DNA of 64,000 nucleotides from Actinernus sp. WN-2022 (Eukaryota > Cnidaria > Anthozoa > Actiniaria > Actinernidae), in the NCBI GenBank assembly GCA_030867875.1, contig JAOWCC010000577.1, positions 83,805,740-83,869,739 on the forward strand, given 5' to 3'. Below are positions 18,101 to 64,000 of this stretch, piece after piece. The first letter of the stretch is position 1. Every line of letters starts with the position of its first letter. Below the pieces are notes generated by a model, which worked only from the letters and a program-made list of their open reading frames with translations, was not told the DNA's origin and searched no databases. The translations under genes were made by a program, and so were the position numbers.

Positions 18101-19170
18101 ATTACTCGGGCTGCCTGTGGCAGCGCCGAGTCTGAAAATGCAAGTGTTTTTTTTATTTTTTTTTATTCAGTGTCAGACGGCTTCTGCGCATGCGTTAAAG
18201 GTCAAATTCAAACCAATCAGATTGCACTGTGCTGGTCACGCAAACAAAGGTTAGATTTCCTCAGGCGCGCTCAGATAAGAAAATTCCAAGCTCAGACTAC
18301 CTTATTATAGGAAATTAACAATGCACGTTGACAACGCGAAGAAAATTTACGTTACACTAAATTAACGCGAATTTTTCAAAAGTTAGGTTTACATGCATTA
18401 AATTAACGCGAATTTTTCGATAAGCATCTTGCTTTATTTACTGCGATTTTCATAATTCTGCAAACTCGCACTTTACATTTCTGAACGCCAAACTGCGTTT
18501 TGGCTTCCGTCAATAAAACCTTCTAAGACAAGTGCACGGATGTTTCTAAGTTTTTTTTAAAGCCGAAAATTTGGGTTTGAAGCCTAACTAGACCCTATCA
18601 ATTCAAAAGATCTTTCAAAGCCTCACGGTGAAATCACCAAGAGCTGCTCACTCGTTTGATTGACGGAAACCAAACCGCAATAGTGACTCTGAAGAGCCAA
18701 TAGAGGAGTCATGAACTAATAAGGTTTTGAAATGAAATAAAGGTGCTTTAAAATAACAATGTTGTAAAATAGCGTGCATTAAATTTACATCGACATTAAT
18801 TAAGATACATTAAATTAACGCGAATTTTGTAAAATCGCGTTAATAAAGTGCATTGTTAATTTCCTATAATAAGGTAGGCGAGACAAGGAGATATCAATTT
18901 CAAATAGTCATTGTCAGAAATCTATTCCATCGTGGGCAATGATGCAATACAACCTAAATTTGGGTCAGGTCCATGTTTTACGACAGAATAACCAGAGTCT
19001 TTCTACTGGATTCGGAGAGCTCGAGACATCAGATACAAGTCTGCTAATATGGGGAAAACTGAAACAAAAAATGAACTTTGACGGCAGAAACCCTCATATT
19101 TGAGCCAAGCGGAATATTTACATGATCCGCTAAGATTTTTACAAATCTAATTAGTTAAGCAGATGTCACG
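18101..19170 (+). mobile_element. Composite dispersed element starting 'ACTCGGGCTGCCTGTGGC'
   Basis: The segments 18170-18299 and 18875-19170 correspond, as reverse complement, to about 52925-52985, 52603-52665 and 52346-52602. Shared landmarks are 'CGCATGCG', 'ATCAGATTGCACTGTGCTGG', 'GGCGAGACAAGGAGATATCA', 'TCAGAAATCTATTCCATCGT', 'TTTTACGACAGAATAACCAG' and 'GCCAAGCGGAATATTTACAT'. The left end matches 54742-54766 in reverse. This copy is split by the insertion at 18300-18874, and the 52-kb copy has an unrelated insertion. It is non-coding. Confidence 0.8.
18300..18874. mobile_element. 575-bp DNA element, 27-bp TIRs, TA target duplication
   Basis: Both ends read 'CCTTATTATAGGAAATTAAC' and then 'AATGCAC' (27 bp, perfect inverted repeat). 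They are flanked by TA at 18298-18299 and 18875-18876. The inverted paralogue near 52.61 kb reads 'CGCCTAGTCTGAG' with a single TA and no insert, so the boundaries are certain. Subterminal copies of 'AAATTAACGCGAATTTT' occur twice near the left end and once near the right. There is no coding capacity. TA duplication suggests mobilisation by a Tc1/mariner-like or similar transposase, which is inference. Confidence 0.9.
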
Positions 19171-25771: not shown

Positions 25772-28700
25772 TTAGGCCTGGTTTTCAAGTAAAAATAATT
25801 TGTATTGTTTTTTAAAACTATTGTGTGGGAGGGATTTTATTTCTAACGGTATTTTTTCCCATAATCGTGATGCAAGAGATTTAAATCTCGATAGACCATA
25901 ATTAGTTCTGGAAGCTGGTCTGTATAAGTTTTGGTTAGTAGCATATCTAGTATTATAATTATGAATATCAGTTGCAGAGGGGACTAAGTCGAAAAAAACA
26001 GGTGGTACACCTATTTTAACATATTTTATTTTGTGAACAAGAGTGGAGATTTTCAGATTAAAGGCATTGTCAAGTTTTAGAATTTGCAAAATTCTATAAT
26101 ATGGGGTGGCATTTTCAAATTTGCTAGCAAAGAAAATGCAGCGAACACATTTATTTTGCTTTGTTTTAATTTTACTTAGTCTAGTCTTAACAGCAGTACC
26201 CCAGGTCATTAGGCCATAACTCAAATACGAATAGATAAGAGTATAATAAAGTTGCTTTAGAATAGTAATAGAAATATGGTATCTTAGCTTACAAATAATT
26301 CCAATATTTTTGGCAATTTTATTATTAACATGTGTAATTTGAGTGTCCCATCGTAAGTGTTCGTCAATAAAAACCCCAAGATATTTAATATATGTTTTTT
26401 GCTCAATATTGCAAGCAGTTATTCTTATATTAGGGTTCTTCTTAGGGGAGGTTATCAACATATAATTTGTTTTTTTTAAATTAATCGATAATTTGTTTGC
26501 TGCACAATATTTTAAAACATTAGCAAGCTCTTCATTAATAACTCTTTCTAGTTCTTCAGAGTTATTTGAAGAATATAAAATATTTGTATCATCAGCGAAT
26601 ATTCTGAAAAGGAGTTTTTGAGAGGAGTTTGGAAGATCATTTATGTACAATAAAAAAAGTAAAGGGCCTAAAGTTGATCCCTGTGGAATGCCACAGGTTA
26701 TGTTTCTTAGACTAGATTCTGTATTATCAATTTTAACATATTGTTTACGATCTGTTAAATAGCTTGAGAACCAATTATGTGGTAAACCACGAATGCCATA
26801 TTTATACATTTTTGCCAATAAAATATCATGGTTAATCGTATCAAATGCCTTCGAAAAATCTAGGAATATACCACAAGTTATTTTGTTTTCATCTATAGCC
26901 GTCTTCAGGTTTTCTATAGTTTCAAGTATTGCATATTCTGTAGAGTAGCCTTTCCTAAAGCCAAACTGATAATTAAATAGTATATTATATTTTTCAAGGA
27001 AGGACATCAGTTGGTCATATACCATTTTTTCCAGAACTTTACTGAATGATGAAATAATTGCTATAGGTCTATAATTACCTAATTCTGTTGCACAGCCACT
27101 TTTGAATATAGGGGTTACTCTCGAGATTTTAAAAATATTTGGTACAGTCCCTGTTAGAATTGATTCATTGAAGATTTTTGTAAAAGGAACAGATAATGGT
27201 TCACTTGCCAGTTTAATAAATTTATTTGGAATATTTATATATGCTTTATTTTCATTTAGTGTAGCAAATTGTGTTAAAACTTCGGCTTCAGACACAGGCG
27301 ATAGAATAAAACTAGAGGATGGAGAATTGTTTATATATTGTGTGGGATTTACGAAATCGTTATTTATAATCTTGCTTGCTAAAGTTGGACCAATATTAAC
27401 AAAGTAGTGATTGAAATGTTCTGCAATATCAGCTTGTTGGGTCACAGTTTTATTATTATGAACAATTCTAATGGGTAAGGACTGTCCTTTTGTTTTACGT
27501 TTAATAAGAGTACCAATTAGTTTCCAAGTATGTTTAAGATTATCTTTATGTTTAAAAAATTGGTTGGAATAGTAGTCTTTTTTGCTTTTATCTTTCAAAT
27601 GTGTAAGTATATTTGCATATTGCTTATATTCCCTAGTTTTCTGTGGGTCTTTGCTATTAAAATGTGTACGATACATTTTTTGCTTCCTTTTTATTGATTT
27701 AAGTATGCCAGCTGTAAGCCAAGGTTTATTGAGTTCTTTCTGTTTTGAATTAGAGGCCTGTTTCATTGGGGCATGTTTGTTAACAGTAGTCATTATGGCA
27801 TTGATTGCATCATGTGTTTTTTCATTTAAATTCTTTCTTACATCTAAGACTTCTTCCCAATTTATTAATTTTATATCAGCCAAATATTGATCCTTATTAA
27901 ATTTAGAATAATCTCGATAATATTGTTTGCGACTAATTTTTTCCACTTGAGTTCGAACTATGCAGAATATTGGCAGGTGATCAGATATGTCAACAGTAGC
28001 AATTCCTGAAGTAATCTGGGATAAAGGTGTGTTGGTATAGATATGGTCAATAAGTGTTGAAGTGTGATCCGTTATTCTAGTAGCTTTGGTAATAACAGGG
28101 AGAAGGCTATTAGTAAATAGCATATCTAAATATTCTTCAGTCAGTGAATGTATATTACATTTAAAAAAGTCAACATTTATGTCACCAAATATGTAAATTT
28201 GATGTTTATTGGGGTTCAGTGTTTTAATAATGTTATTTAGTTGAGTAGTAAATTCTGCAAGATCATTAGTAGGGTGTCTGTATATACAACCAACAATTAT
28301 AGGTTTTGCATTCTTTCCTGGATCAATTTGGGACCAACAGGATTCCACTAATTCCAATTCGAATTTGATATCTGGTCTAGGTACAGCTTTAATATTTTTA
28401 GCTATGTAGAGGCCTGCACCACCAGCATTAGTTAATGAATCAATATGAAGGAAATTATAAGAGCGGATGTCAATATTTGTAACAGAATATTCGTTAAGTT
28501 TTGTTTCAGTAACTCCTATTATATCCGGTTTAAAGTCTAAAGAGCAAATTATTTCTTCCAGTAGATCTAAATTTTTGGGAAGGCTTCTAACATTACAGTG
28601 AAAAATTGAGAGGGCTTTTGGGCCAGACTCATTCATAGCTTTGTTTAATTTTGAAACTGAAAAGTAATTAGAGTTAGGCGCGGCAAGCATCAAATCAGAG

Positions 28701-28855
28701 TCGCATTCGTCATGTTTATCTGGATTAGAAAACAAATCATAAAGGTCAAAATCGTCGTTTAGCAAACCAGACCAGCTTCCAAACATAGCATGAAATTCTC
28801 TATCAGATAGTGAATAAAAAGGGAGAGTACTTACAATTTCTTGAAGACCAGCCAT
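25772..28855 (-). CDS. LINE ORF2: apurinic endonuclease plus reverse transcriptase
   Basis: 1027-aa polyprotein that nicks target DNA and reverse-transcribes the element RNA at the nick. The APE-type endonuclease covers about residues 82-300: 'FHCNVRSL', 'VTETKL' (acidic catalytic site), 'YRHP', 'FGDINVD' and 'SDHLPIF'. Reverse transcriptase covers about 560-830: 'NYRPIAI', 'DFSKAFDT' (motif A, Asp666), 'GIPQGSTLGPLLF' and the catalytic 'FADD' at 753-756. A C-terminal region with several Cys follows. Length is normal for the family and no stop or frameshift was seen. The ATG lies 45 bp after the ORF1 stop, as expected for a two-ORF LINE. The clade (CR1/L2 rather than jockey or Rex) is inferred from overall layout. 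Confidence 0.93.
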   Translation of the reverse strand: MAGLQEIVSTLPFYSLSDREFHAMFGSWSGLLNDDFDLYDLFSNPDKHDECDSDLMLAAPNSNYFSVSKLNKAMNESGPKALSIFHCNVRSLPKNLDLLEEIICSLDFKPDIIGVTETKLNEYSVTNIDIRSYNFLHIDSLTNAGGAGLYIAKNIKAVPRPDIKFELELVESCWSQIDPGKNAKPIIVGCIYRHPTNDLAEFTTQLNNIIKTLNPNKHQIYIFGDINVDFFKCNIHSLTEEYLDMLFTNSLLPVITKATRITDHTSTLIDHIYTNTPLSQITSGIATVDISDHLPIFCIVRTQVEKISRKQYYRDYSKFNKDQYLADIKLINWEEVLDVRKNLNEKTHDAINAIMTTVNKHAPMKQASNSKQKELNKPWLTAGILKSIKRKQKMYRTHFNSKDPQKTREYKQYANILTHLKDKSKKDYYSNQFFKHKDNLKHTWKLIGTLIKRKTKGQSLPIRIVHNNKTVTQQADIAEHFNHYFVNIGPTLASKIINNDFVNPTQYINNSPSSSFILSPVSEAEVLTQFATLNENKAYINIPNKFIKLASEPLSVPFTKIFNESILTGTVPNIFKISRVTPIFKSGCATELGNYRPIAIISSFSKVLEKMVYDQLMSFLEKYNILFNYQFGFRKGYSTEYAILETIENLKTAIDENKITCGIFLDFSKAFDTINHDILLAKMYKYGIRGLPHNWFSSYLTDRKQYVKIDNTESSLRNITCGIPQGSTLGPLLFLLYINDLPNSSQKLLFRIFADDTNILYSSNNSEELERVINEELANVLKYCAANKLSINLKKTNYMLITSPKKNPNIRITACNIEQKTYIKYLGVFIDEHLRWDTQITHVNNKIAKNIGIICKLRYHISITILKQLYYTLIYSYLSYGLMTWGTAVKTRLSKIKTKQNKCVRCIFFASKFENATPYYRILQILKLDNAFNLKISTLVHKIKYVKIGVPPVFFDLVPSATDIHNYNTRYATNQNLYRPASRTNYGLSRFKSLASRLWEKIPLEIKSLPHNSFKKQYKLFLLENQA

Positions 28856-28900: not shown

Positions 28901-29710
28901 CTATTGTACTATCTGGTCAAGATATTCATCGAACTGTTCATACGTGACAAAGGTTAATGGCGGCGAAGTGTCAGACTCTCTTAGCAAAATCCTTCCATTA
29001 ACGGTCCAAAGATACTTGTAATGATAATTACGCTTGAATTCTAAAATACGCCCAAAAAGTCGCTTTCTATAGGAGGTGAGGCTTTCGTTAATATGGATAG
29101 CAGCGTTGTGCTTGATAGCAACTGATTCTGGTTGGGCTCGGACTGTCGGCAGATCTTTGGTCTTCTTTGTCCTTAATTGGCCTCGCTTCTTGTATATTTC
29201 TTCGCGTTTTGATCTCCTAGTGAATTTCACGATGATCCGATCTTGGACCTTCTTTGTAGGCGGGAGTCGATGGGCTATAGAAATATCCTGATCGTCTAGT
29301 TCCACGCCAATTACGGTAGCCATTTCTTTGATGAGCTTAGCGGGATCGTCGTTCGGGACAATTGGGATTCCTGTAATTTCGAGCGAATCCCTCCTCGTAT
29401 ATTGTTCCAGTTCATCGAGGCGGCTCTCGAGTCTGTAATTGCCATCTTGCAAGAAGTTGGCGTCTTTCTCGATTTGTTGTATCCGGCCTTCGGTTCCTTG
29501 AGCTTGCTTCTTAATGTCTTGGACTAGAGCCACAAGAGTATCGTATTGGTTAGAGATGAATTGTTGCGAAGCTTCTATCTCGTCGAACTTTCGGTTTAAA
29601 GCAACAATTTTTTCATTCAATGGCTTCGCTTCCCGTTGTATTTCCTGGCGGATATTTGGGAGAAATTCATCCCTCCAAGTAGATCGTAGGTTATCCAATG
29701 TTAAAGACAT
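28901..29710 (-). CDS. LINE ORF1: coiled-coil RNA-binding protein
   Basis: 269 aa. The N-terminal half is strongly heptad-like and charged (about residues 15-110, ending 'LDELEQYTRRDSL'), as in trimeric L1/L2-type ORF1 proteins. It is followed by an RRM-like 'LEITGIP' strand and a basic region 'KFTRRSKREEIYKK' expected to bind the element RNA. The C-terminal segment 'NGRILLRES' fits the conserved end domain. The frame is intact and it lies directly upstream of ORF2. In the family, ORF1 packages LINE RNA as a chaperone; here that is inferred. Confidence 0.85.
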   Translation of the reverse strand: MSLTLDNLRSTWRDEFLPNIRQEIQREAKPLNEKIVALNRKFDEIEASQQFISNQYDTLVALVQDIKKQAQGTEGRIQQIEKDANFLQDGNYRLESRLDELEQYTRRDSLEITGIPIVPNDDPAKLIKEMATVIGVELDDQDISIAHRLPPTKKVQDRIIVKFTRRSKREEIYKKRGQLRTKKTKDLPTVRAQPESVAIKHNAAIHINESLTSYRKRLFGRILEFKRNYHYKYLWTVNGRILLRESDTSPPLTFVTYEQFDEYLDQIVQ

Positions 29711-54690: not shown

Positions 54691-54766
54691 TTGCGACACC
54701 CAACAAAAAAAAATAACGACTTGCATTTTAAGACTCGGTGCTGCCACAGGCAGCCCGAGTAATTAG
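54691..54766 (-). repeat. Composite-element end 'GCTGCCACAGGCAGCCCGAG'
   Basis: The reverse complement of 18101-18175, including 'ACTCGGTGCTGCCACAGGCA' and the adjacent 'CATGCGCAGAA'. It marks the left neighbour of the virus-like element. Confidence 0.7.
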
Positions 54767-54786
54767 TGGCTGATCTACGCCAAATT

Positions 54787-54926
54787 TGCATACGAACTCA
54801 ACATACGAATTAATCGTAGCTTAGCTACTGCTCTTCGTAAAGTGAAAATAACGCCCACGCTTGATGACGTAATGTACCACTATGACAAGACAGAAATTTA
54901 CATACGAACTCGACATACGAATTAAT
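54787..54926 (+). repeat. Direct repeats near the left end of the virus-like element
   Basis: 'CATACGAACTCAACATACGA' followed by 'ATTAAT' at 54789-54814 recurs with one change at 54901-54926. It may be part of the Polinton terminal repeat, but the other terminus is outside the window. Confidence 0.55.
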
Positions 54927-54990
54927 TTATACGAAGCTTTTTGTGAAATGGAGGTAGCTACCTTGCTTATTTCTCTCGATTTTTATCCCA

Positions 54991-55558
54991 CTAGACTGCC
55001 AAGTTTTGCTCGCAGTTCTTGCTTGAGTTCGGCCGAATTTGTTCCACGCTTTTTTCACCTGTGGGTCCCGAACTAGCCGAAGTTTTGTGGCGAATTTCAA
55101 CCCTCATAGCCTCGTATTTATCTGCTTCAGCGAGGATGAGATTGTAGTCGGAGTCAGACACATTTTCATCACGCAGGGCTTTCGACACGAGATCACGAAT
55201 CGTATTAATTTTCGCTCTCGCCAACATAGCGGTTTTCTCATGCTTAGAAATTTTTATTCCGAGTTTTTTAGCCCCAACAGTCGTAGAGGCTGAAATTAAC
55301 CCACATAGCCCGCCGATAACGCCAAGCGGTAGGCCAAGAGCTTGATAAAAGCACACTAAGGCTACCTGTGGCCACAGCGATACCGTGGGCAATTCCCTGC
55401 GCATGGGCATATTTTTTACGCACCGCCTCGTAGTGTTGTTATTGGGCTTTGATGCTCTCAAGCGTATCGCGGACCTCTCGCCGACGAAAGTTCTCTCCAG
55501 AGAGCGAGGGATAGATCTGTGGCGCCGTCGGAATGGTTTGAATTGAGTCGCTTGTCAT
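54991..55558 (-). pseudogene. Polinton-associated membrane/helical protein, broken
   Basis: The probable ATG is at 55556-55558 ('MTSDSIQTIP'). An in-frame TAA occurs after about 40 codons, and a frameshift follows near 55360. After that shift the frame 55461-54991 reads a Gly-rich hydrophobic segment ('LPLGVIGGLCGLISAS') and then a charged helical domain ('KKLGIKISKHEKTAMLARAK...NTIRDLVSKALRDENVSDSD...EADKYEAMR'). This combination of one or two membrane segments plus a helical bundle is common among small Polinton genes of cnidarians; its role is unknown. It is transcribed towards the left end. Confidence 0.65.
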
Positions 55559-55635
55559 TATACCTATGGTTATATATTATATATATATATACATAGATAT
55601 ATATATACAGTCAATGCCAAAAAGGTTGTCCAGCA

Positions 55636-55733
55636 GAACATAATATAATACTATAATATCCATTGTTTTGGGCTATTGTCTAGACCAAAACAATAGGCCA
55701 AAACAATGGATATTAAAGTATTGTATTATATTC
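55636..55733. repeat. 98-bp near-perfect hairpin between two virus-like genes
   Basis: Stems of about 44 nt (55636-55679 and 55690-55733) pair with about five mismatches around a 10-nt loop. The core is 'AATATCCATTGTTTTGG'. It lies in the spacer between the two minus-strand genes. It could be a MITE insertion or a transcription/processing element of the host element. Confidence 0.85.
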
Positions 55734-55799
55734 ACCACAAACAAGACACGAAACTAACTTAGCAGTTGTGGCTATTATTGCCGCCGGAGCCGCGTGGAT

Positions 55800-56729
55800 G
55801 ATATTTCGTTGATTAGCGACGTCGTCCCGACGATTTATACTGCTCCATTAGAAGTATAACCACTCCCACAATCAGCAACCCGCAGTCCGGAATATAAAAC
55901 TCGCAATAGCACCTACCATTCCAGGTAGTATTTGTCCCAACCTTTTTCGAATATCCTTCAAACCGCCGCCAACCACCCCGGCCACGCTAGCCAACTTTGT
56001 AGACAGCGCGGAAACTATAACACCAATCACGGCAGCCGCAACGGCCATCACTCCAAGCACCGTGAAACCATACTTCTTGAATAGGGCTTTTGCACGGTCC
56101 CGTAGCGACATACGACTTTCAATGGCCTCAATTTGTTGCTTGAGCTTCTGTATCTGATCCTATAGTTCTATTGTTTGCTTCTTTGCTGCTTTGTATTCTG
56201 GTGTTCCCTTCTTTAAGGAAGCCATAGCTTTTATTTTCTCAGTTTTTTGTTTCTCGAGTTTGTCACGGTCGGCCTCGTCTTGACTAATCATCTCTTTCGC
56301 AGGAGGCCCCAGAGCATCTACGAGCGTTTTAGGCAATTTTTCATTGAGATTGCCTTTGCCGTCCAACAGAACGTGGGCTATGCTCTTACCACGATTGAGT
56401 CGCACCACAACCCTATCATATTCGTTCAACCCCGCAGTGAACCCAGCATTCTCTGGGTCTACTTTTGGAAACTTAGCACGGATGCGGTCCCAGGCCGTTT
56501 TAGTCTGTTCTGCCAATTCCATGTATTCAGTTCTACTGGTTCCCCATTTACTCTGATTTTTATACATCTTATCCAGAATGGCTTGTGATAGATCTCCTAA
56601 TTTGCTACGCACTCTAGTTGACCAAGCCGCCTCTGTCTCATGTGCACCAGGTCGAGACTCTGCCCATTCTCGCCTAGCACTCTCATCCTCCGCAGTGCGA
56701 CATTTTTCGGTTGTGGTTTCACCTTCCAT
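55800..56729 (-). pseudogene. Polinton-associated helical plus membrane protein, split by a stop
   Basis: Two frames, 56729-56160 (189 aa) and 56111-55872 (79 aa), are in the same register. They are separated by a single TAG at 56160-56162, and the 16 intervening codons are open. The N-terminal part is charged and helical ('MYKNQSKWGTSRTEYMELAE...AKFPKVDPENAGFTAG...NRGKSIAHVLLDGKGNL'). The C-terminal part has a hydrophobic segment 'FTVLGVMAVAAAVIGVIVSA', a Gly-rich linker and 'GQILPGMVGAIASFIFRTAG'. A stop follows; a small deletion there shifts the frame, and a further hydrophobic stretch with a basic tail is readable to about 55815. Function unknown, possibly a virion membrane component. Confidence 0.65.
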
Positions 56730-56792
56730 ATTGAACGTTGAATAACCCTAGTAGTTATACTACGAGTATACTGTGAGGATTGACTTTTCAAT

Positions 56793-58029
56793 ATGCTATC
56801 ACCAAATCTCCATCCGGACTATGCTCCAAGAGAAGGTAGATCTATCAAAGCCAGCCGTGTGTTCCACCGCGTAACTTTCACCCGGTCAGAGGCCAATCCA
56901 GGAGCAAAGTTGAAAATAAGCTGCTAGTACCTGGCAGTCTGGCACTCAGCGCCAATATCACTCTATCTGGTGGTCATGCTAACAACCATTTGGTTGCCAA
57001 TGTTGTGCGCTGTCTAGTCTCAAAGCGGGTCGTAAAATAGGCACTACTGTCTTAGAAGATTGTGGTCGACCCGATCTACTGCAGGTATATGGTGATCTCT
57101 ACCTACCTACCGTAGAACGGGAGAATCGCATAGAGCAGGGTATTCAATCCGCTAATGTGAACAAACTTCGCTCGGGTGCTGGCGATAAATACACCTCGAA
57201 TGCGGCTGACAATGCAACACTGGCTGCATATGGTAGCGTGTACAAGATACCTATTGATCACGATATTATCACAACTTATGGGGTCTTTTATCCGCATGCG
57301 CTTCGAGACAAGATGTCCTTCAATTTGACTCTGGCACCAGCCACAGTCGTCATAGTTGGATCTGACAGCACAAAAGTAGGCACATATAAACTCACAGACA
57401 TTGAGCTTAAATATGAAGTCATCGAAAGTCTTGCTCTTGCGGTGCAGGCCAAGGAAGTCTACGACAGCGGCAAAGCCTTCCTGTACAACCATGCCGAGTA
57501 CTTCAAGACCATCTCAGTCAACCAAGCAACCGACACACTTATAACTGAAAATGTGAACGTACTTCGTCGCTCTTTCACTGGTATCCTTCTTCTCTTTGTG
57601 GATCCACAAACTGCAGGCACCCGAGACAGTGAGTAGTTTGTAAATTCAGGCATCACCAAGGTCGAAGTGCATGTCAACAGCATCCCCAATGCTCTATATT
57701 CTTTTGGTATGCTACCAAGGGATTTATGGAAGTCAGCAAATAATTGGTTTTGTGGATTGTCGTCCCGACAAGATGTTGGAACGACGGCCACTACATCCAT
57801 GACACATAAGAAGTTCTTCGAGAACAAGTTCGCCGTACTCATCGACTGTCGCACTTCTCAAAACAGTACAGCTCATGGAGATGGTTTGGCCCAACTAGAT
57901 ACGGGAGCAAATATTCGCCTGCGGGTTCATCGAACAGGCGGCACAGGGATTGTGAATATGCATATATTCGTGCTTTCTGATACTCAGGCAACTATTGAAC
58001 AAGGAATGCGGCAACATGTTTATAACTAA
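56793..58029 (+). pseudogene. Polinton capsid protein, broken (F54H12.2-like)
   Basis: ATG at 56793. After about 40 codons the frame is lost, with one or more shifts between 56910 and 57150. It then runs from before 57157 to a single in-frame TAG at 57634-57636 and stays open in the same register to the TAA at 58027-58029. Recognisable stretches are 'FYPHALRDKMSFNLTLAP', 'LFVDPQTAGTRDSE' and 'GMLPRDLWKSANN'. I recall these as belonging to the F54H12.2-like family common in cnidarian Polintons, widely taken as a jelly-roll capsid protein. The total of about 410 codons is short for a double jelly-roll major capsid protein, so whether it is the major or minor capsid is undecided. Its stop overlaps the ATPase start (TAATG). 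Confidence 0.65.
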
Positions 58030-58663
58030 TGGACACATTAGTAGAACAAATTCCCTTTAACGCCTTGATAATTGGCCCCACAAACTGTGGAAAGACTCAG
58101 TTTGTGATCGATCAGTTGCGGGGTCCATTTCGTTTTAAGTTCGATTATATCGTGTTGATTTGTCCCACCTACGTTCACAATAAGACCTACCAAGGTTTCG
58201 GTAGTGGAGATCCGCGCTTCATTTGTATAGCACCTTCGCAGAATGCTATCGATGACACCCTGCGCGAATGTGCTTGTTTATTCGAAGGAACAAACACGCT
58301 TATTATCCTTGATGATTGTGCCGCAAGCAAGGACGTCAAGGGAAGGACCGATAAGCTATCTGACTATCTTTTTCTGCACGCCACATTGGCATTTCCATTT
58401 GGGCATCGGCACAAACGCAAAAGAGCATATGCAAGGATTTTCGCGAGAACTGTGCAATCGTTGTGGCCTTTCGCATCGCAAGTGCGCCGGGCCTCAAGGA
58501 TCTGTTTGATGACTATGGTGCTGGACTATCGCCGGATGACAAAAAGCTATTTATCTCAGAGCTTGAGACCAAGTTTGCCCACATATGCTTCTGTTTGCGT
58601 CATCCATTTAACACCATATTGGAAATACCTGCGCCTGTGACATACCACGATATGTTAAAGTAA
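58029..58663 (+). pseudogene. FtsK/HerA-type DNA-packaging ATPase, one frameshift
   Basis: This is the motor that would pump viral DNA into the capsid. Walker A is 'GPTNCGKT' (residues about 14-21) and Walker B 'TLIILDDCAA' (about 93-102). The first frame is correct to about 58375. The C-terminal part ('LKDLFDDYGAGLSPDDKKLF', 'ICFCLRHPF') lies in the next frame and ends at 58663. One shift near 58375 explains the break, with no other stop seen. The start ATG overlaps the capsid stop by one base, and the next gene starts 2 bp after the stop, so all three probably share a transcript. Confidence 0.85.
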
Positions 58664-58664
58664 G

Positions 58665-59228
58665 ATGGGCGAAGGGTCCGACGATATACTAGACTATATA
58701 ATAGGTGAGTCCTCTGAAGAAAGCAAAACAGATAGGGCATGTTGCTCTGCCACCGCAGCCGTGGAAGCATCGGCTGATACATTGGCTGATCATCGGGAAG
58801 CACTTGCGATTTTAGCTGCCACTGGTACAACAAAGGACTACCTTGGGAAATCGTACTCTCTAGGAGATATCCATAGACTATCTGAGAAAGACGTTGAACG
58901 ACTATATAGAAGGCACCAGGCCGTTTTAGCTCAACAAATAACAGGCTGTTTCGTCAATAGTATGATGACCCTAGCTACTCGTGTAGTTGCGTACTTATTA
59001 CCCATAGATTCCAAACAAGCACTACTAAAGGACTTACAAGAAGATCGCCTAGTCCGCAATGAGATCTCTTCTTGGGCTGGCTCGTGGGCTCTTACATCAG
59101 GTCGCTTCGTGGCCCTAGCTAGTTCTATGTTTCATGTAGCCAACCACATAGAAGTTGCCTCTTCTGATAAATCTTTTGAAGACACACCAACTATCAACAT
59201 ACAGCAAGATGTCGGAGCGTCAGAATGA
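58665..59228 (+). CDS. Unknown 187-aa helical protein of the Polinton
   Basis: Intact frame directly after the ATPase. The N-terminal third is acidic and low in order ('GEGSDDILDYIIGESSEESK'). The rest is predicted mainly helical, with moderately hydrophobic stretches ('NSMMTLATRVVAYLLP', 'ALTSGRFVALASSMFHVAN'). No catalytic motif was recognised. The last 20 bp overlap the start of the next gene. Position between ATPase and membrane genes suggests a structural or assembly role, which is inference only. Confidence 0.6.
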   Translation: MGEGSDDILDYIIGESSEESKTDRACCSATAAVEASADTLADHREALAILAATGTTKDYLGKSYSLGDIHRLSEKDVERLYRRHQAVLAQQITGCFVNSMMTLATRVVAYLLPIDSKQALLKDLQEDRLVRNEISSWAGSWALTSGRFVALASSMFHVANHIEVASSDKSFEDTPTINIQQDVGASE

Positions 59229-59859
59229 AAACGTAGAAAAGAGATCCGCCATTCATGACTTATCGCAAGAGTTATCGCAAGTAGAAGAAAAGTTGGAAAC
59301 ATTAAGCAACAATAACACCCCCTACGTGCTTTCCGCAGTCGGAGTAACCCTAGCAATGGTAGGGTTGTCATATATGGACTACCTCACCAAGGTAAGACGG
59401 CGCTTATTCAATGACTGGCACGACAAACGACACACTATGGCCGTACTTACTTCATCCATTCCAGTAACTACCCCACCCGCCCCAGTAATTCCAGTAACTA
59501 CCCCACCTAGTTCAGTAATTACTCCACGCCGCAAATGTAGGTGTGACGAATCAGCACGATGTAATCATCGCGAGTATGGGTTGGCCGAAGCAACACGGTA
59601 TTACAACCTTGGGTGGGACGACTCAGCACGAAGTAGGCGTGAACTAGATGGAACGATTAATAGAATAGGTGGAGTAATTGTTCCATCTAGTTCAGTAACT
59701 ACGCCACCTAGTTCGGCAACTACTACACCTACATGTAGTTCAGTAGTTACTCCACCAATTACTCCACCTAGTTCGGCAATTACGCCACCTAGTAGCGACC
59801 CTACAATTGAAGCTATGTCACTTGCCAACATACAGCAAGATGGAAGAACCTCCGAATGA
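59209..59859 (+). CDS. Membrane protein with Thr/Pro-rich tail, tandem copy 1
   Basis: 216 aa from ATG 59209, preferred over 59155 because the second copy starts at the same point in an identical leader ('CAACATACAGCAAG'). A charged coiled-coil-like N-terminus (residues 1-35) is followed by one membrane segment 'PYVLSAVGVTLAMVGLSYM' (about 38-56). After this come a basic patch, a short Cys/His cluster ('CRCDESARCNH') and a long tail of 'TTPPSS'-type repeats. The tail resembles mucin-like stalks. No stops or shifts. Paralogue of 59840-60226. Confidence 0.6.
   Translation: MSERQNENVEKRSAIHDLSQELSQVEEKLETLSNNNTPYVLSAVGVTLAMVGLSYMDYLTKVRRRLFNDWHDKRHTMAVLTSSIPVTTPPAPVIPVTTPPSSVITPRRKCRCDESARCNHREYGLAEATRYYNLGWDDSARSRRELDGTINRIGGVIVPSSSVTTPPSSATTTPTCSSVVTPPITPPSSAITPPSSDPTIEAMSLANIQQDGRTSE
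59457..59800 (+). repeat. In-frame minisatellite 'GTAACTACxCCACCTAGTTCA'-type
   Basis: Degenerate units of about 12-24 bp encoding Val/Ile-Thr-Pro-Pro-Ser-Ser, in two blocks (59457-59530 and 59685-59800). Unit length keeps the reading frame, so it expands the tail of the 59209 gene. Confidence 0.75.
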
Positions 59860-60226
59860 CCTCATCACAAAAGAACCAACTACGCCTAAAAAAGAAAAAA
59901 ATCCAAAGCGCGTTGCTGCCGGTAAAGCCATAGCGGAAAGAAGAAAACCAACTAAAGACGCCCTCGCCAGCAATCCGGTAGACAAAAAAGAGGAAGACGA
60001 TCGGGACGACAAGCCAAGCTGGATAGCCAACAACATGTCGACCAATACCACACTCACCGCAGTTGGAGTAAGCATAGCACTGGTAGGTTTGTACTATCAG
60101 TATATGCGTTACACGCAACTGCGCCAGGATAGACTCAATAACTGTTGTTTGTCGGGGACCGCAATCGGGACGAAGGCAGAGGCCACCACCAAAGGTAGCA
60201 CTCTTAAAACTAAAGGTATGATATAG
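59840..60226 (+). CDS. Membrane protein, tandem copy 2
   Basis: 128 aa. The N-terminus is Lys/Glu/Pro-rich ('PTTPKKEKNPKRVAAGKAIA'), then one membrane segment 'TLTAVGVSIALVGLYYQYM' that closely matches copy 1, then a short basic tail without the Thr/Pro repeats. It overlaps the previous gene by 20 bp, exactly as copy 1 overlaps the gene before it, so the duplication copied the stop-start junction as well. Function unknown; possibly an envelope or inner-membrane protein of the virus-like particle. Confidence 0.6.
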   Translation: MEEPPNDLITKEPTTPKKEKNPKRVAAGKAIAERRKPTKDALASNPVDKKEEDDRDDKPSWIANNMSTNTTLTAVGVSIALVGLYYQYMRYTQLRQDRLNNCCLSGTAIGTKAEATTKGSTLKTKGMI

Positions 60227-60260
60227 CATTTGAAGACATATCTCATATTTCATATCGATT

Positions 60261-60476
60261 ATGCACGAACTTATGAAAACATTATCAGACGCTGCCATAT
60301 TGACTGGACTTGCAGCAGGCATCGGCTGGATCGTAAAAAAAGTCATCAAAGAGCCCATGACTGGCGATCCTTCATCAAGCGTTTTGAACTACGTAAAGTG
60401 GACAGCTGTGTTGACTGGTAGCCTTACCGCTAAGCAATACCTCGAGGATCGAAAGATCTTACCTGCTAATTTGTAA
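60261..60476 (+). CDS. Small membrane protein, 71 aa
   Basis: Two hydrophobic segments ('AAILTGLAAGIGWIVKK' and 'WTAVLTGSLTAKQYL') separated by a short polar loop with 'KEPMTGDP'. The frame is intact, 34 bp after the preceding stop. Membrane association is inferred from composition. Confidence 0.55.
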   Translation: MHELMKTLSDAAILTGLAAGIGWIVKKVIKEPMTGDPSSSVLNYVKWTAVLTGSLTAKQYLEDRKILPANL

Positions 60477-60482
60477 CGAACG

Positions 60483-60914
60483 ATGGCATCGATAATAGGT
60501 GCGGCAATTGCTTTTGCTATATTCGGGACTGGCATAAGCTACGGCGCCAAATACTTCGAGAAAGCGATTAGTGGGCCAGATGCGTTCGATGTAGAGACTG
60601 AAAGACACGATAGAGCCCTTGAGAAATTTAATGCTGATAATACTGCCTATGAAGAACAGCGCGAAATACTACTAGAACAACTAGCCACCTGGGAACATGA
60701 GAGAGAAAGGCAGCAACACGATTCAGTTGCTGATAGAGCCGATGCGCTTCGAAAACTCTCCTTGTTTAGGAAAATCCATGCAGAGCTAGAGGCTATGAAA
60801 AAATCCCACCGCTCTGATTACTATCGCCCATCAAGGTCGAAAGAAAATGCCGAATTGGCGGCCGTAGGTGGTGGGGTGGTCGCACTAGGATACGTTTCCA
60901 GCAAATTGCTATAG
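60483..60914 (+). CDS. Coiled-coil membrane protein, 143 aa (copy 1)
   Basis: A hydrophobic N-terminus 'SIIGAAIAFAIFGTGISYGA' is followed by a charged helix ('ETERHDRALEKFNADNTAYE...LATWEHERERQQHD') and a hydrophobic C-terminus 'LAAVGGGVVALGYVSSKLL'. The start lies 6 bp after the 60261 gene. The frame is intact. A decayed duplicate follows at 61254-61604 with the same 'ERHDRALEK' signature. Function unknown. Confidence 0.6.
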   Translation: MASIIGAAIAFAIFGTGISYGAKYFEKAISGPDAFDVETERHDRALEKFNADNTAYEEQREILLEQLATWEHERERQQHDSVADRADALRKLSLFRKIHAELEAMKKSHRSDYYRPSRSKENAELAAVGGGVVALGYVSSKLL

Positions 60915-61190
60915 CGTTTTCTTAGAAAAAACAACACAAAAAACAAAAACGATTACTAGGTAATTACGTTAATTACTAGGTAATTACTAGACCAGCGATT
61001 GCTACAGCGTTTTTCTTAGAAAAAAAAAAAAAAGATTACTAGATAATTACGTTAATTACTAGGCAATTACTAGACCAGCAAATTGCTATAGCGTTTCCTT
61101 AGAAAAATAAATAAAAAATGCACAAAAAAACATTACTAGATGAGTCCCTAGGTAATTACGTTAATTACTAGGTAATTACTACACCAATTG
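60900..61190 (+). repeat. Three tandem units of 85-105 bp downstream of the 60483 gene
   Basis: Each unit reads 'TTGCTA(T/C)AGCGTTT', 'CTTAGAAAAA', an A-rich run, then 'ATTACTAGGTAATTACGTTA' and 'ATTACTAGxxCAGC'. The start of each unit equals the 3' end of the upstream gene, so the repeat arose by duplicating that gene end. The inner 'AATTACTAGGTAATTACG' is nearly palindromic. Confidence 0.85.
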
Positions 61191-61253
61191 TACCCATCTA
61201 GTAATCTTTTTTTCTGCGTGTTGAAGTTTGGTGGGATACACCATATAGTAACG

Positions 61254-61604
61254 ATGAGTGTTCCAGACTTGGTGGCTATAGAGGCTGAAAGACATGATAG
61301 AGCCCTTGAGAAATATCAAGCTATTTGGGCTACTTTCCAGGAGGCCCGCAAAAAATTGGCTGACTGGGTCCAAGAGCAGAAACGTATGCAGCGTCACTCC
61401 CACAAATATCTATCCAATTTGACTCGAGCTCGAATCCTATTCAATACGGCCCAAGTAGGGCTAGACCATTTAAGTCTGCAGAATATGAAGGAGCCTCGTT
61501 TCTCCGATTAATATCGGTCATCAAGGCCACAGAAAACTGCCGAATTGGTGGCCGTAGGTGGTGGGGTGCATGCGCTAGTATACGTTGCCAGCCGATGGCT
61601 ATAG
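61254..61604 (+). pseudogene. Decayed duplicate of the 60483 gene
   Basis: ATG 61254. 'AIEAERHDRALEKYQAIW' matches copy 1, then the sequence diverges, with a stop at 61509-61511. The 3' part is still readable past the stop ('TAELVAVGGG', 'YVASRWL'). The N-terminal membrane segment is absent. The leader 'GTTGAAGTTTG(G/A)TGGGATAC' also precedes the integrase, indicating that intergenic DNA was duplicated too. Confidence 0.6.
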
Positions 61605-61694
61605 CGCCTTCCTTAAGGAACGAAAAAAAAACACCTATTTTTCGCTTGTTGAAGTTTGATGGGATACGTCATATGGCAGGTTCATTTCGAAACC

Positions 61695-62793
61695 ATGGCT
61701 GTTCCAAAGGAACAGAAACCGTCGATTCGGCTAGTTCGGGACGAACAGGTGAAGGTATTCGCGAATACTTACTATAGTCCTCAAGGCTATTGGAAAGGAC
61801 TCGCCGCGATTAAACATCTTGCCACTGCAACTGGCATCTCCGAAGATGTGGCTAGGATGTGGCTGGAAAAACAAGCTATATGGCAGATCTATTTACCAGC
61901 TCCTCAATATATATGTTCCACGACCTAAATTTAAAGTCTCTACGCCAAACGAGGTTCACCAAGCCGATCTGCTCTTCCTTCCGCATGATCGCCCTGGACG
62001 TGGACGAAAGCTATATAAGTATGCACTTACAGTCGTTGACGTAGCATTCAGATACAAAGAAGCCGAGCCATTAGCCACTAAAGAAGCTAAAGAAGTTGCT
62101 GCGGCCTTTGAGCGAATCTACAAGCGAAGTCCACTGACATGGCCAAAGCTGCTCCAGGTCGATCCAGGGCGTGAGTTCATGGGTGCTGTTTCTCAGCTGC
62201 TGGCCAAGCATAAAGTTTCTGTAAGGCGTGGACGTGTGGACATTCACCGGGATCAAGCAATTGTTGAGCGTTTTAATCGTACGCTGTCTGAGAGGCTATT
62301 CCGATACCAGTATGCTCAGGAGATGGTGCTTGCTTCACAAGGAAGGGATGATAGGTCAGTTGAGTGGGTAGCTCGTCTACCTGAGGTCGTCAAAGCTTTG
62401 AACAATGAAGTTACGCGTTTGACAGGAAAACAGCCAACCATAGCAATTGCATCGCTGGGACAGCTGGGACAATCAATTGAATCGAAGCCGGCAGAACCTG
62501 CACACTATGGGCGCTTAGTTGGTCTCAAAGAGTAAAGGCTTTCATTCGACGTTGGTGTTCGATATCTATATACACCTGGTGAACTGGAAGGTGGACGCCG
62601 GCGTGCAACTGATCCTATACGGTCTTTAGATATATACCAGCCAGGGAGTGTTGCTATCAAGCCTAACGAACCAGTCCTTTACTATTTGGCGGCTGTCGTC
62701 TCGACTGCTGTACCGCTGCGTGGTTTCGTTCGCGAAGAGCTGCAGGTGGTAGCTACAGACACAGAACTACCGCCAGATGGTGTCTTAGACTAG
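61695..62793 (+). pseudogene. Polinton integrase (retroviral-type DDE), two breaks
   Basis: ATG 61695. The N-terminal region 'YWKGLAAIKHLATATG...WLEKQAIWQIYLPAP' is in one frame. A one-base slip near 61910 in an AT run moves the catalytic core to the next frame: 'HQADLLFLP' (first Asp), 'QVDPGREF' (second Asp) and 'DQAIVERFNRTL' (Glu, about 35 residues later). A single in-frame TAA at 62533-62535 follows 'YGRLVGLKE'. The same frame then continues to TAG 62791-62793 and ends 'LPPDGVLD', where a chromatin-binding tail is usual. It would join element ends to target DNA. It overlaps the polymerase 3' end by 9 bp, tail to tail. Confidence 0.85.
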
Positions 62794-64000
62794 TAGCTCA
62801 TCAATGAGATCATCGAAGTTTACCTCATCTTTGTGCCCATATGCAAATGTTACATCCACCCCATTTTCTGCAATCCATCGCTTGGAGTCGAATGGCGAGA
62901 GAGAGACCTTATTCATATGAATACCATACATTCTATGCCCTTCACTTCGAAGCATATCCATACCATGGTGAAACACTTTTTTATCCAGCAGGCACTCTTT
63001 GTATTGCCTATGGCGGATGCGGTGTTTCACAACAGGCCTGCGCGTTCCCTTTGCTTTCCGGATCTCCGTACCATCTGCTTTCAAGATTGAGTAGAGTTTT
63101 GACCGTAGTCCAACGTAGTCCACAATGGGAGTACCTTCGCATTCGTCTTTCATTTTGCCGAGGCCTTTCTTGTTGTTGATGTTATACAACAGGTGGTCCT
63201 TGCTGTAGTTACTCGTATCGTAAAGATGTGCGTGGGCACCAATATCTACATAGATATCTTCCGTTTCGACGTGTAGTAGGAGACTGTCAGTGTCTGTGTA
63301 GAGTAGCTTACAGCGTTGCCCAAATTGTTGCTGGAGCTCGTTATAGTAGAAATCATACATCAAATGCTTTGAGAGGTCTAGGATCGACATCCCAACATAT
63401 GTCGGGCGGTTCAGTAGTAGTCTGCTTTTGTAGTTGTGTACGGCAGCTAGCTCATCGTCAAAGATCGTGGAGTGAGCATAGCTAGGTTTGTTCAAGAGAC
63501 GCTGTAGTCTGATTTCCTCTGAAGACCGCACCAGCTGAACGTCTATACGCTTGCGTAGTTGTTCATTAACTTGTAAAGTTCTTGCTCGAATGTGCTCTTT
63601 GCCTGTTTTCGTAGCTCTGTGTTCATTCGGATGTATGGCTCCATCCATGGGCTTTGATCAAAGCAAATTGCTCTGTGGATCTTTTTCAGACACATGCCTA
63701 GAGAGAGGTATAGCTGTAGGTTGCGGTAGTGAAGCACATATCGCTCTTTATCATAGAGGTTAGGTATTAGCTTCTCCACTTTCAAGGATCCATTGCCCTT
63801 GTAGAGCTTCTCGAACATTTTGGTTTGATACTCTGAGAACCAGGCTTTATCTACCTGCATTCTCTCTGGCGCCAGAGGATAACTGTTATGTGCCTTGTGA
63901 AGTTTTCGAGGATACTCTAGGTCAACCTCAAGGATATAACCTTTATCTGCATCGTTTGCTAGGTTAACAACCTGTTGTTCAGTGAGTTTGCACCACTTAA
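62785..64000 (-). pseudogene. Protein-primed family-B DNA polymerase, partial and frameshifted
   Basis: The frame is open from the window edge to 63543 and holds the first palm motif ('ILEVDLEYP', about 63930) and the region leading into motif B ('LYKLMNN'). There a small deletion shifts the frame. The second frame (to 62785) continues 'KRIDVQLVRSSEE' and has the catalytic 'YTDTDS' and later 'YVGLRSKLYS' with a basic thumb region. The 'DLEYP' and 'YTDTDS' motifs and the context fit Polinton polymerases, which start from a terminal protein. The break removes the core of motif B. Exonuclease and N-terminal parts lie outside the window. Confidence 0.85.

What the first reader, a model, noticed from the sequence alone, without database searches (positions are those of the whole stretch)
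54787..64000. Polinton-like element with a compact, unusual gene complement
The visible order is: two leftward helical/membrane genes, capsid-type protein, ATPase, unknown 187-aa gene, duplicated membrane proteins, two small membrane proteins, integrase and convergent polymerase. The ATPase and integrase are separated by five small genes, several hydrophobic, instead of the cysteine protease and penton gene common in other Polintons. Either those genes are past the window or this lineage has replaced them with membrane proteins.
Basis: partly seen in the sequence, partly recalled or inferred. Interest (0 to 1): 0.75.

Follow-up and report, generated by a model that had tools for sequence, protein, structure and literature searches.

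The report
Broken Polinton-like element missing penton gene
The stretch is a decayed, gene-deleted copy of a large virus-like DNA element that is abundant in its host genome; sister copies still carry the gene this copy seemed to lack, and some carry a gene related to a single-strand-DNA-binding protein of African swine fever virus.

Summary
The gene order is largely real, but it comes from a broken copy running from about 54.77 kb to about 67 kb (the genome was read past the window), with frame breaks in its capsid-candidate, ATPase, integrase and polymerase genes. The host genome holds at least 150 scored relatives of its ATPase. In ten fetched places a penton-like 221-aa gene occurs in 7 and a 550-aa gene in 8; both lie between the two leftward genes. 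The window keeps only about 70 bp of the 550-aa gene, beside a 98-bp palindrome. So the penton candidate is neither past the right edge nor replaced: it was deleted here. The small genes coexist with it (four have dN/dS 0.20-0.55). No adenain-type protease was found; about a quarter of published Polintons lack a recognisable one. Unexpectedly, five of the ten copies join a closely related capsid-ATPase pair (80-88%) to a very different polymerase (about 24% identity) and a homologue of African swine fever virus CP312R, an ssDNA-binding protein (E 4.5e-45, one copy tested). Best filed as a new variant of Polinton-type elements. Capsid and penton folds are unproven: both fold predictions, made for the capsid candidate, failed.

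The parts
54765..54990 (.). inferred left terminal region, with a 33-bp direct repeat (54782-54814, 54894-54926)
   Evidence: host interspersed repeat shared with 18101-18243 stops at 54763; repeat; 54893-55054 matches the left end of another element in L033 at 74%. The exact terminus is inferred.
54991..55558 (-). g1, small helical/membrane gene, broken frame
   Evidence: ORF 54991-55461; tblastn of family g1 at 55364-55558, 61%; hydrophobic segment
55559..55733 (.). foreign filler (TA repeat and 98-bp palindrome 55636-55733) where the penton-like 221-aa gene and most of the 550-aa gene lie in relatives
   Evidence: matches to L030 and L024 begin at 55733-55734
55734..55802 (+). remnant of the 3' end of the 550-aa gene
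   Evidence: 93% to L024:3446-3514, where p550 ends
55878..56735 (-). p330, charged helical gene with C-terminal hydrophobic part, split by an in-frame stop
   Evidence: tblastn 48% over 90% of the family protein
56787..58026 (+). major-capsid-protein candidate (family length about 417 aa), broken: frame changes near 56.9 and 57.03 kb, stop at 57634
   Evidence: tblastn 77-83%; 12 database relatives. Capsid role inferred.
58029..58660 (+). A32-type packaging ATPase, frame change between 58364 and 58457
   Evidence: Pfam Pox_A32; tblastn; 1069 database relatives
58665..59228 (+). p177/187-aa gene, open
   Evidence: 62% to the family protein; no relative in the protein database
59155..59859 (+). 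open frame with TTPPSS-like repeats at the place of family gene p100
   Evidence: no tblastn match to p100
59801..60223 (+). p138, basic protein with a weakly hydrophobic C-terminal part
   Evidence: 57.5%; dN/dS 0.23 among sister copies
60258..60473 (+). p72, small membrane-type protein
   Evidence: 65%; dN/dS about 0.2
60483..60914 (+). p140, N-terminal hydrophobic segment plus charged helix
   Evidence: 47%; dN/dS 0.26-0.28
61257..61601 (+). second, broken copy of p140; the window copy lacks the 337-aa CP312R-like gene of type-2 copies
   Evidence: 34%; DNA repeats D3, D7; p337 absent
61770..62787 (+). rve integrase, frame change near 61912
   Evidence: Pfam rve 1.1e-7; tblastn 58-65%
62785..64000 (-). 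C-terminal part of type-1 polB in two frames; continues in L002:2-913 and L002:1062-2162 (window 64002-64913, 65062-66162)
   Evidence: 82-84% to polB pieces of C888:91.1M, one of which is DNA_pol_B_2 3.2e-11

Best explanation
A dead, internally deleted copy of a Polinton-type (Maverick) virus-like element that has multiplied in this host genome. Sister copies whose ends were placed are about 16 kb with terminal inverted repeats of roughly 270 bp. By general knowledge of Polintons, polB copies the linear element by protein priming, the integrase inserts it, and the A32-type ATPase packages the DNA into an icosahedral capsid built from the 417-aa protein with the 221-aa protein at the vertices; the small helical and membrane-type proteins probably belong to the virion. 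This copy lost the penton candidate and most of the 550-aa gene and decayed by small frame breaks. The family is modular: a related capsid-ATPase pair is joined to either of two very different polB modules, one of which brings a CP312R-like ssDNA-binding protein. Shown: gene content, deletion, copy number, repeats, dN/dS, mosaicism. Inferred: capsid and penton roles, priming, packaging.
For: ATPase and integrase by Pfam; polB by Pfam in relatives. 150 scored ATPase relatives of 4793 first-look candidates; 34 of the 150 share the rounded score of 222.2 bits. Penton candidate in 7 of 10, p550 in 8 of 10, p330 in 7 of 10 fetched places. The window keeps only the last ~70 bp of p550. TIRs, and 5-bp duplications CTAGA and ACTTA at 2 of 3 resolved insertions. 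dN/dS below 1 for 10 of 11 genes with a defined ratio. Right edge read directly. p337 matches CP312R, 4.5e-45.
Against: No profile or PDB hit for the capsid or penton candidate; hhalign to the capsid and penton candidates of a polB-related viral contig was not significant; AlphaFold failed for the capsid candidate (mean pLDDT 36.5 and 34.6). The window copy's own right repeat was not found. One type-2 copy shows no target duplication and another was not resolved; the duplications are 5 bp, while 6 bp is what I recall for Polintons. p100 has dN/dS 1.4-1.5. Only 2 of 5 window-like places show the penton candidate, one of them in a neighbouring element.
Confidence: 0.85

Rival explanations
1. The compact layout is a streamlined sublineage that spreads without penton and 550-aa genes, possibly using its sister copies' proteins in trans.
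For: Among the window-like copies C869 and C1288 lack the left genes and most of the capsid gene, and C1312:122.5M has none of the left genes in the fetched stretch left of its capsid gene.
Against: The window copy has breaks in at least four core genes. C869 and C1288 share 98.5% over 4.5 kb and more, so are not independent. C888:91.1M keeps parts of penton, p550 and p330. The missing parts differ between copies.
Confidence: 0.08
2. Protease and penton lie beyond 64 kb in a standard Polinton arrangement.
For: The window ends inside polB.
Against: L002 shows the rest of polB, a short zinc-ribbon-like frame, then host-like GC and no ORF above 130 aa from L002:2163 to 10000. Matches to type-1 copies end at L002:2871. 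tblastn finds no type-2 family gene in L003.
Confidence: 0.02
3. The capsid candidate is not a capsid protein and the element is a non-viral transposon with a DNA-translocating ATPase.
For: No link to any known capsid protein at profile level.
Against: The gene sits directly before an A32-type ATPase, has dN/dS 0.18-0.20, and its length suits a double jelly roll (general knowledge); a penton-like gene accompanies it.
Confidence: 0.12

Closest known systems
Polintons/Mavericks (Krupovic et al. 2014, PMC4028283, passages seen)
   Same: polB, rve integrase, packaging ATPase, capsid-like genes, terminal inverted repeats, about 16 kb (15-20 kb in the paper), short target duplication
   Different: no adenain-type protease found (the paper: PRO identifiable in 74% of Polintons, so absence is not unique); no sequence link of capsid or penton candidate to known ones in our searches; penton candidate separated from the capsid gene by two genes; an extra CP312R-like gene in type 2
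Adintoviruses (preprint PMC11071296, passages seen)
   Same: polB plus integrase; mixed capsid/polB pairings and a few genomes without detectable penton are reported there
   Different: BLASTP recognisability against adintoviruses could not be tested (no reference sequences at hand)
Meld23486, a chimeric meldvirus (same preprint, Figure 7 legend and one passage)
   Same: polB and integrase combined with poxvirus-like virion genes; our ATPase is of the poxvirus A32 Pfam family
   Different: sequence not obtained; kinship untested
African swine fever virus CP312R (PDB 8hw5, 7yeq)
   Same: p337 residues 34-314 align at E 4.5e-45; CP312R is described as ssDNA-binding (PMC9963768 and PMC12172490, passages)
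   Different: p337 lies in a 16-kb integrated element; absent from the window copy

Membership tests
[quoted passage not shown]
   DNA_pol_B_2 4.4e-11 (type 2) and 3.2e-11 (type-1 relative); window piece 63% to L033 polB, though without its own Pfam hit. Protein priming itself not tested.
Polinton/Maverick | retrovirus-like (rve) integrase | tested here: met
   rve 1.1e-7 window, 3.8e-10 sister copy
Polinton/Maverick | FtsK/A32-type packaging ATPase | tested here: met
   Pox_A32 2.7e-4 window, 19 of 19 relatives, sister copy 7e-9
[quoted passage not shown]
   candidate by place only; no PDB or Pfam match, fold failed
Polinton/Maverick | single-jelly-roll penton | tested here: inconclusive
   221-aa gene in 7 of 10 fetched places, absent from the window copy; hhalign to another penton candidate P 0.055; no PDB match
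Polinton/Maverick | adenovirus-type cysteine protease | tested here: not met
   no Peptidase_C5 or C48 match at E up to 1 in the family proteins scanned. The paper finds it in 74% of Polintons, so a common but not universal feature; genome-wide search unanswered.
Polinton/Maverick | terminal inverted repeats and short target duplication | tested here: met
   for type-2 sisters: TIR about 267 bp at C235, 5-bp duplications in 2 of 3 resolved; not found for the window copy
Adintovirus | polB and hexon recognisable by BLASTP to adintovirus references; integrase with C-terminal chromodomain | not testable with these tools
   no reference sequences available; the adintovirus paper is not held
CP312R family (p337, type-2 sisters only) | sequence homology across the ssDNA-binding protein | tested here: met
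   E 4.5e-45, residues 34-314 of 337, for the variant in L040; the other variant (53-55% identical) not tested

The most novel reading that the evidence does not exclude
This is a distinct, recently spreading group of integrating animal viruses that bridges Polintons and large cytoplasmic DNA viruses (A32 ATPase, asfarvirus-type ssDNA-binding protein), works without a maturation protease, and exchanges its replication module (CP312R-like protein, integrase, polB) against a related capsid-ATPase core inside one host genome.
Probability: 0.3. Interest if true: 0.75.

Novelty: new variant of a known kind. Interest (0 to 1): 0.5.

Why it matters
Polintons are central to ideas on how adenoviruses, virophages and giant viruses arose (general knowledge). 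A family in one host genome that joins a related capsid-ATPase core to two deeply different polymerases, and carries an asfarvirus-type ssDNA-binding protein, makes gene exchange between small integrating elements and giant viruses testable with many copies. It also shows that an unusual gene complement should be checked against sister copies before a lineage is said to have lost a gene.

Tried and rejected
IMG/VR scans with capsid, ATPase, integrase, polB and p337 queries gave one relative only, L001 by polB. Prokaryote genomes: none for the ATPase. Phages: none for polB, ATPase, capsid and p337. Rfam at gathering threshold on the window: none. PHROGs: nothing convincing. NCBIfam: only below-cut-off transposase matches for the integrase (IS481 1.1e-13) and weak matches for the ATPase relative. 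The 187-aa gene: none of 577 candidates at E 1e-3. Two AlphaFold jobs on database relatives of the capsid candidate were far too poor to search with, so no fold search was run; the penton candidate was found too late to be folded. The idea that the small genes are chance frames was rejected for p177, p138, p72 and p140 by dN/dS 0.20-0.55 (p177 rests on 5 synonymous changes and p72 on 4 per comparison); p100 stays open (1.4-1.5). The motif at 55054/61726/L002:2868 was noted but not explained.

One search shows 80-88% only for capsid and ATPase (63% average for the window's broken ATPase); the other shared genes are 31-72% and the integrase 52-66% between the two types. The wording was mended and the novel case lowered from 0.35 to 0.3.
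Full report
What was given. It asked whether the missing genes lie past 64 kb or were replaced.

What is in the window. ATPase and integrase are supported by Pfam (Pox_A32 2.7e-4; rve 1.1e-7). The window's polB pieces have no Pfam hit of their own, but one is 63% identical to L033 polB and relatives hit DNA_pol_B_2. The gene before the ATPase has 12 database relatives at 42-53% identity and is the capsid candidate. Coding density far exceeds simulated sequence (18 frames of 120 aa or more against a mean of 1.2 and a maximum of 6), and GC is 45% against 38% in the first 54.7 kb of the window. Yet the core genes are broken: the capsid candidate by two frame changes and a stop, and the ATPase, integrase and polB by frame changes. 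This is a dead copy.

Past the window. The window lies in a 1.39-Gb genome; that the host is an animal is inferred. The next 20 kb was fetched. polB continues, leftward-reading, to L002:2162, followed by a zinc-ribbon-like frame at about L002:2.3-2.45 kb. Matches to related copies end at L002:2871, GC falls to host level between about L002:2.5 and 3.5 kb, and no ORF above 130 aa follows in L002. L003 was searched only by tblastn with the family's proteins, without a match. The left limit is set by a host repeat that stops at 54763.

Sister copies. A search with the ATPase piece scored 150 copies of 4793 first-look candidates, a lower bound; 34 of the 150 share the rounded score of 222.2 bits, and two of the fetched right-hand pieces are 99.9% identical over 4.26 kb, which suggests a recent burst. 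Ten places were fetched as separate pieces: five window-like (94-97% ATPase) and five of the 81% group. The 81% group reads, from left to right: zinc-ribbon-like gene (-), g1 (-), 221 aa (-), 550 aa (+), p330 (-), capsid candidate (+), ATPase (+), p177, p100, p138, p72, p140, 337 aa, integrase (all +), polB (-). The ends read AGTAGTATATG inward; the inverted repeat at C235 is about 267 bp, and the three copies with both ends placed are about 16 kb. Flanking 5-bp duplications (CTAGA, ACTTA) are seen at 2 of the 3 insertions resolved; the third shows none and a fourth was not resolved.

Presence and absence. Penton-like 221 aa: 7 of 10 places (5 of 5 of the 81% group; C888:91.1M, cut by the fetch limit; and a neighbouring element in L033). 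550 aa: 8 of 10. p330: 7 of 10. 337 aa: 5 of 10, all in the 81% group. The window has none of the 221-, 550- and 337-aa genes beyond a ~70-bp stub of the 550-aa gene at 55734-55802, directly next to a 98-bp palindrome. Caveats: only 5 kb upstream of each ATPase was fetched for window-like copies, only 2 of those 5 places show the penton candidate, and two of those copies (C869, C1288) are near duplicates.

The penton candidate. The 221-aa protein looks beta-rich to the eye and aligns over most of its length with the penton candidate of the polB-related contig L001, but weakly (hhalign probability 1%, P 0.055); the PDB gave no match. Two genes lie between it and the capsid candidate; Krupovic et al. 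describe penton genes next to or one gene away from the capsid gene (PMC4028283, passages). I call it a candidate.

The protease. No Peptidase_C5 or C48 match at E up to 1 appeared in the family proteins scanned. The same paper reports PRO identifiable in 74% and ATPase in 83% of its Polintons, so a missing protease is not itself new.

The small genes. Between sister copies dN/dS is 0.43-0.55 for p177, 0.23 for p138, 0.20-0.21 for p72 and 0.26-0.28 for p140, beside 0.18-0.20 for the capsid candidate, 0.03-0.12 for the ATPase and 0.08-0.14 for the integrase; the 221-aa gene has 0.38-0.46, p550 0.20-0.29, p330 0.44-0.52, p100 1.4-1.5, and p337 was too diverged for a ratio (L040 against L042 and L034). 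Four small genes therefore look real, and they coexist with the penton candidate.

Two surprises outside the window. First, the polB of the 81% group shares only about 24-25% identity with the window type, while the capsid candidate is 81-83% and the ATPase 80-88% identical in the fetched window-like copies (the window's own broken ATPase averages 63%); the other shared genes lie at 31-72% outside g1, the integrase at 52-66%. Within the 81% group L038 equals L040 at 99-100% over the first 7.5 kb of the piece and then falls to 93, 60, 67, 85 and 95% per 500 bp, a break around the start of p337; three of the five carry a p337 at 53-55% together with integrase at 93% and polB at 90%. The right-hand module thus seems to be exchanged as a block. 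Second, p337 matches ASFV CP312R at 4.5e-45. CP312R is described as an ssDNA-binding protein (PMC9963768, passages; nucleoid table in PMC12172490, passages). No paper of the held library contains both 'CP312R' and 'polinton'; this is one search of one library. In Bellas et al. (PMC10120064, passages) cnidarian capsid genes are the only metazoan ones outside the main Maverick-Polinton cluster; whether this host is a cnidarian was not determined.

Verdict. Observation partly confirmed; interpretation partly supported. The window copy itself is ordinary decay; the family is a new variant of a known kind.

Noticed in passing
L040:7829-8839 and homologues in L034, L036, L038, L042: 337-aa gene of type-2 sister elements; the L040 variant matches ASFV CP312R (ssDNA-binding) at E 4.5e-45; a second variant is 53-55% identical to it.
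   Followed up: partly
L038 versus L040, around L040:7.8-8.0 kb: Drop from 99-100% to about 60% identity: mosaic elements with an exchanged right-hand module.
   Followed up: partly
window 55636-55733: 98-bp palindrome (86-91% complementary) at the deletion joint, preceded by a TA repeat.
   Followed up: partly
window 55054-55081 (inverted), 61726-61753, L002:2868-2891: 24-28 bp motif, 93-100% identical, at three places of the element, the third where matches to relatives end.
   Followed up: no
window 60938-61118: 83-bp tandem repeat with TTACTAG-rich units between the two p140 copies.
   Followed up: no
window 25772-28855 and 28901-29710: Two long leftward ORFs (1027 and 269 aa) that look like a LINE-type retrotransposon (from memory of motifs, not scanned).
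   Followed up: no
L001:2219-2659: IMG/VR contig with a related polB also encodes a phospholipase A2-like protein (PF08398, 1.1e-14).
   Followed up: no
L002:2-913, L031:1974-3356, L033:794-2965: Type-1 polB carries an Endonuclease_7-like segment (PF02945, 4e-6 to 4e-5); not seen in the one type-2 polB scanned.
   Followed up: partly
L034:1233-2711 versus L040:1059-2711: The 550-aa gene is 61% identical between two copies whose adjacent genes (221-aa and p330) are 86-89% identical: perhaps another exchanged segment.
   Followed up: no
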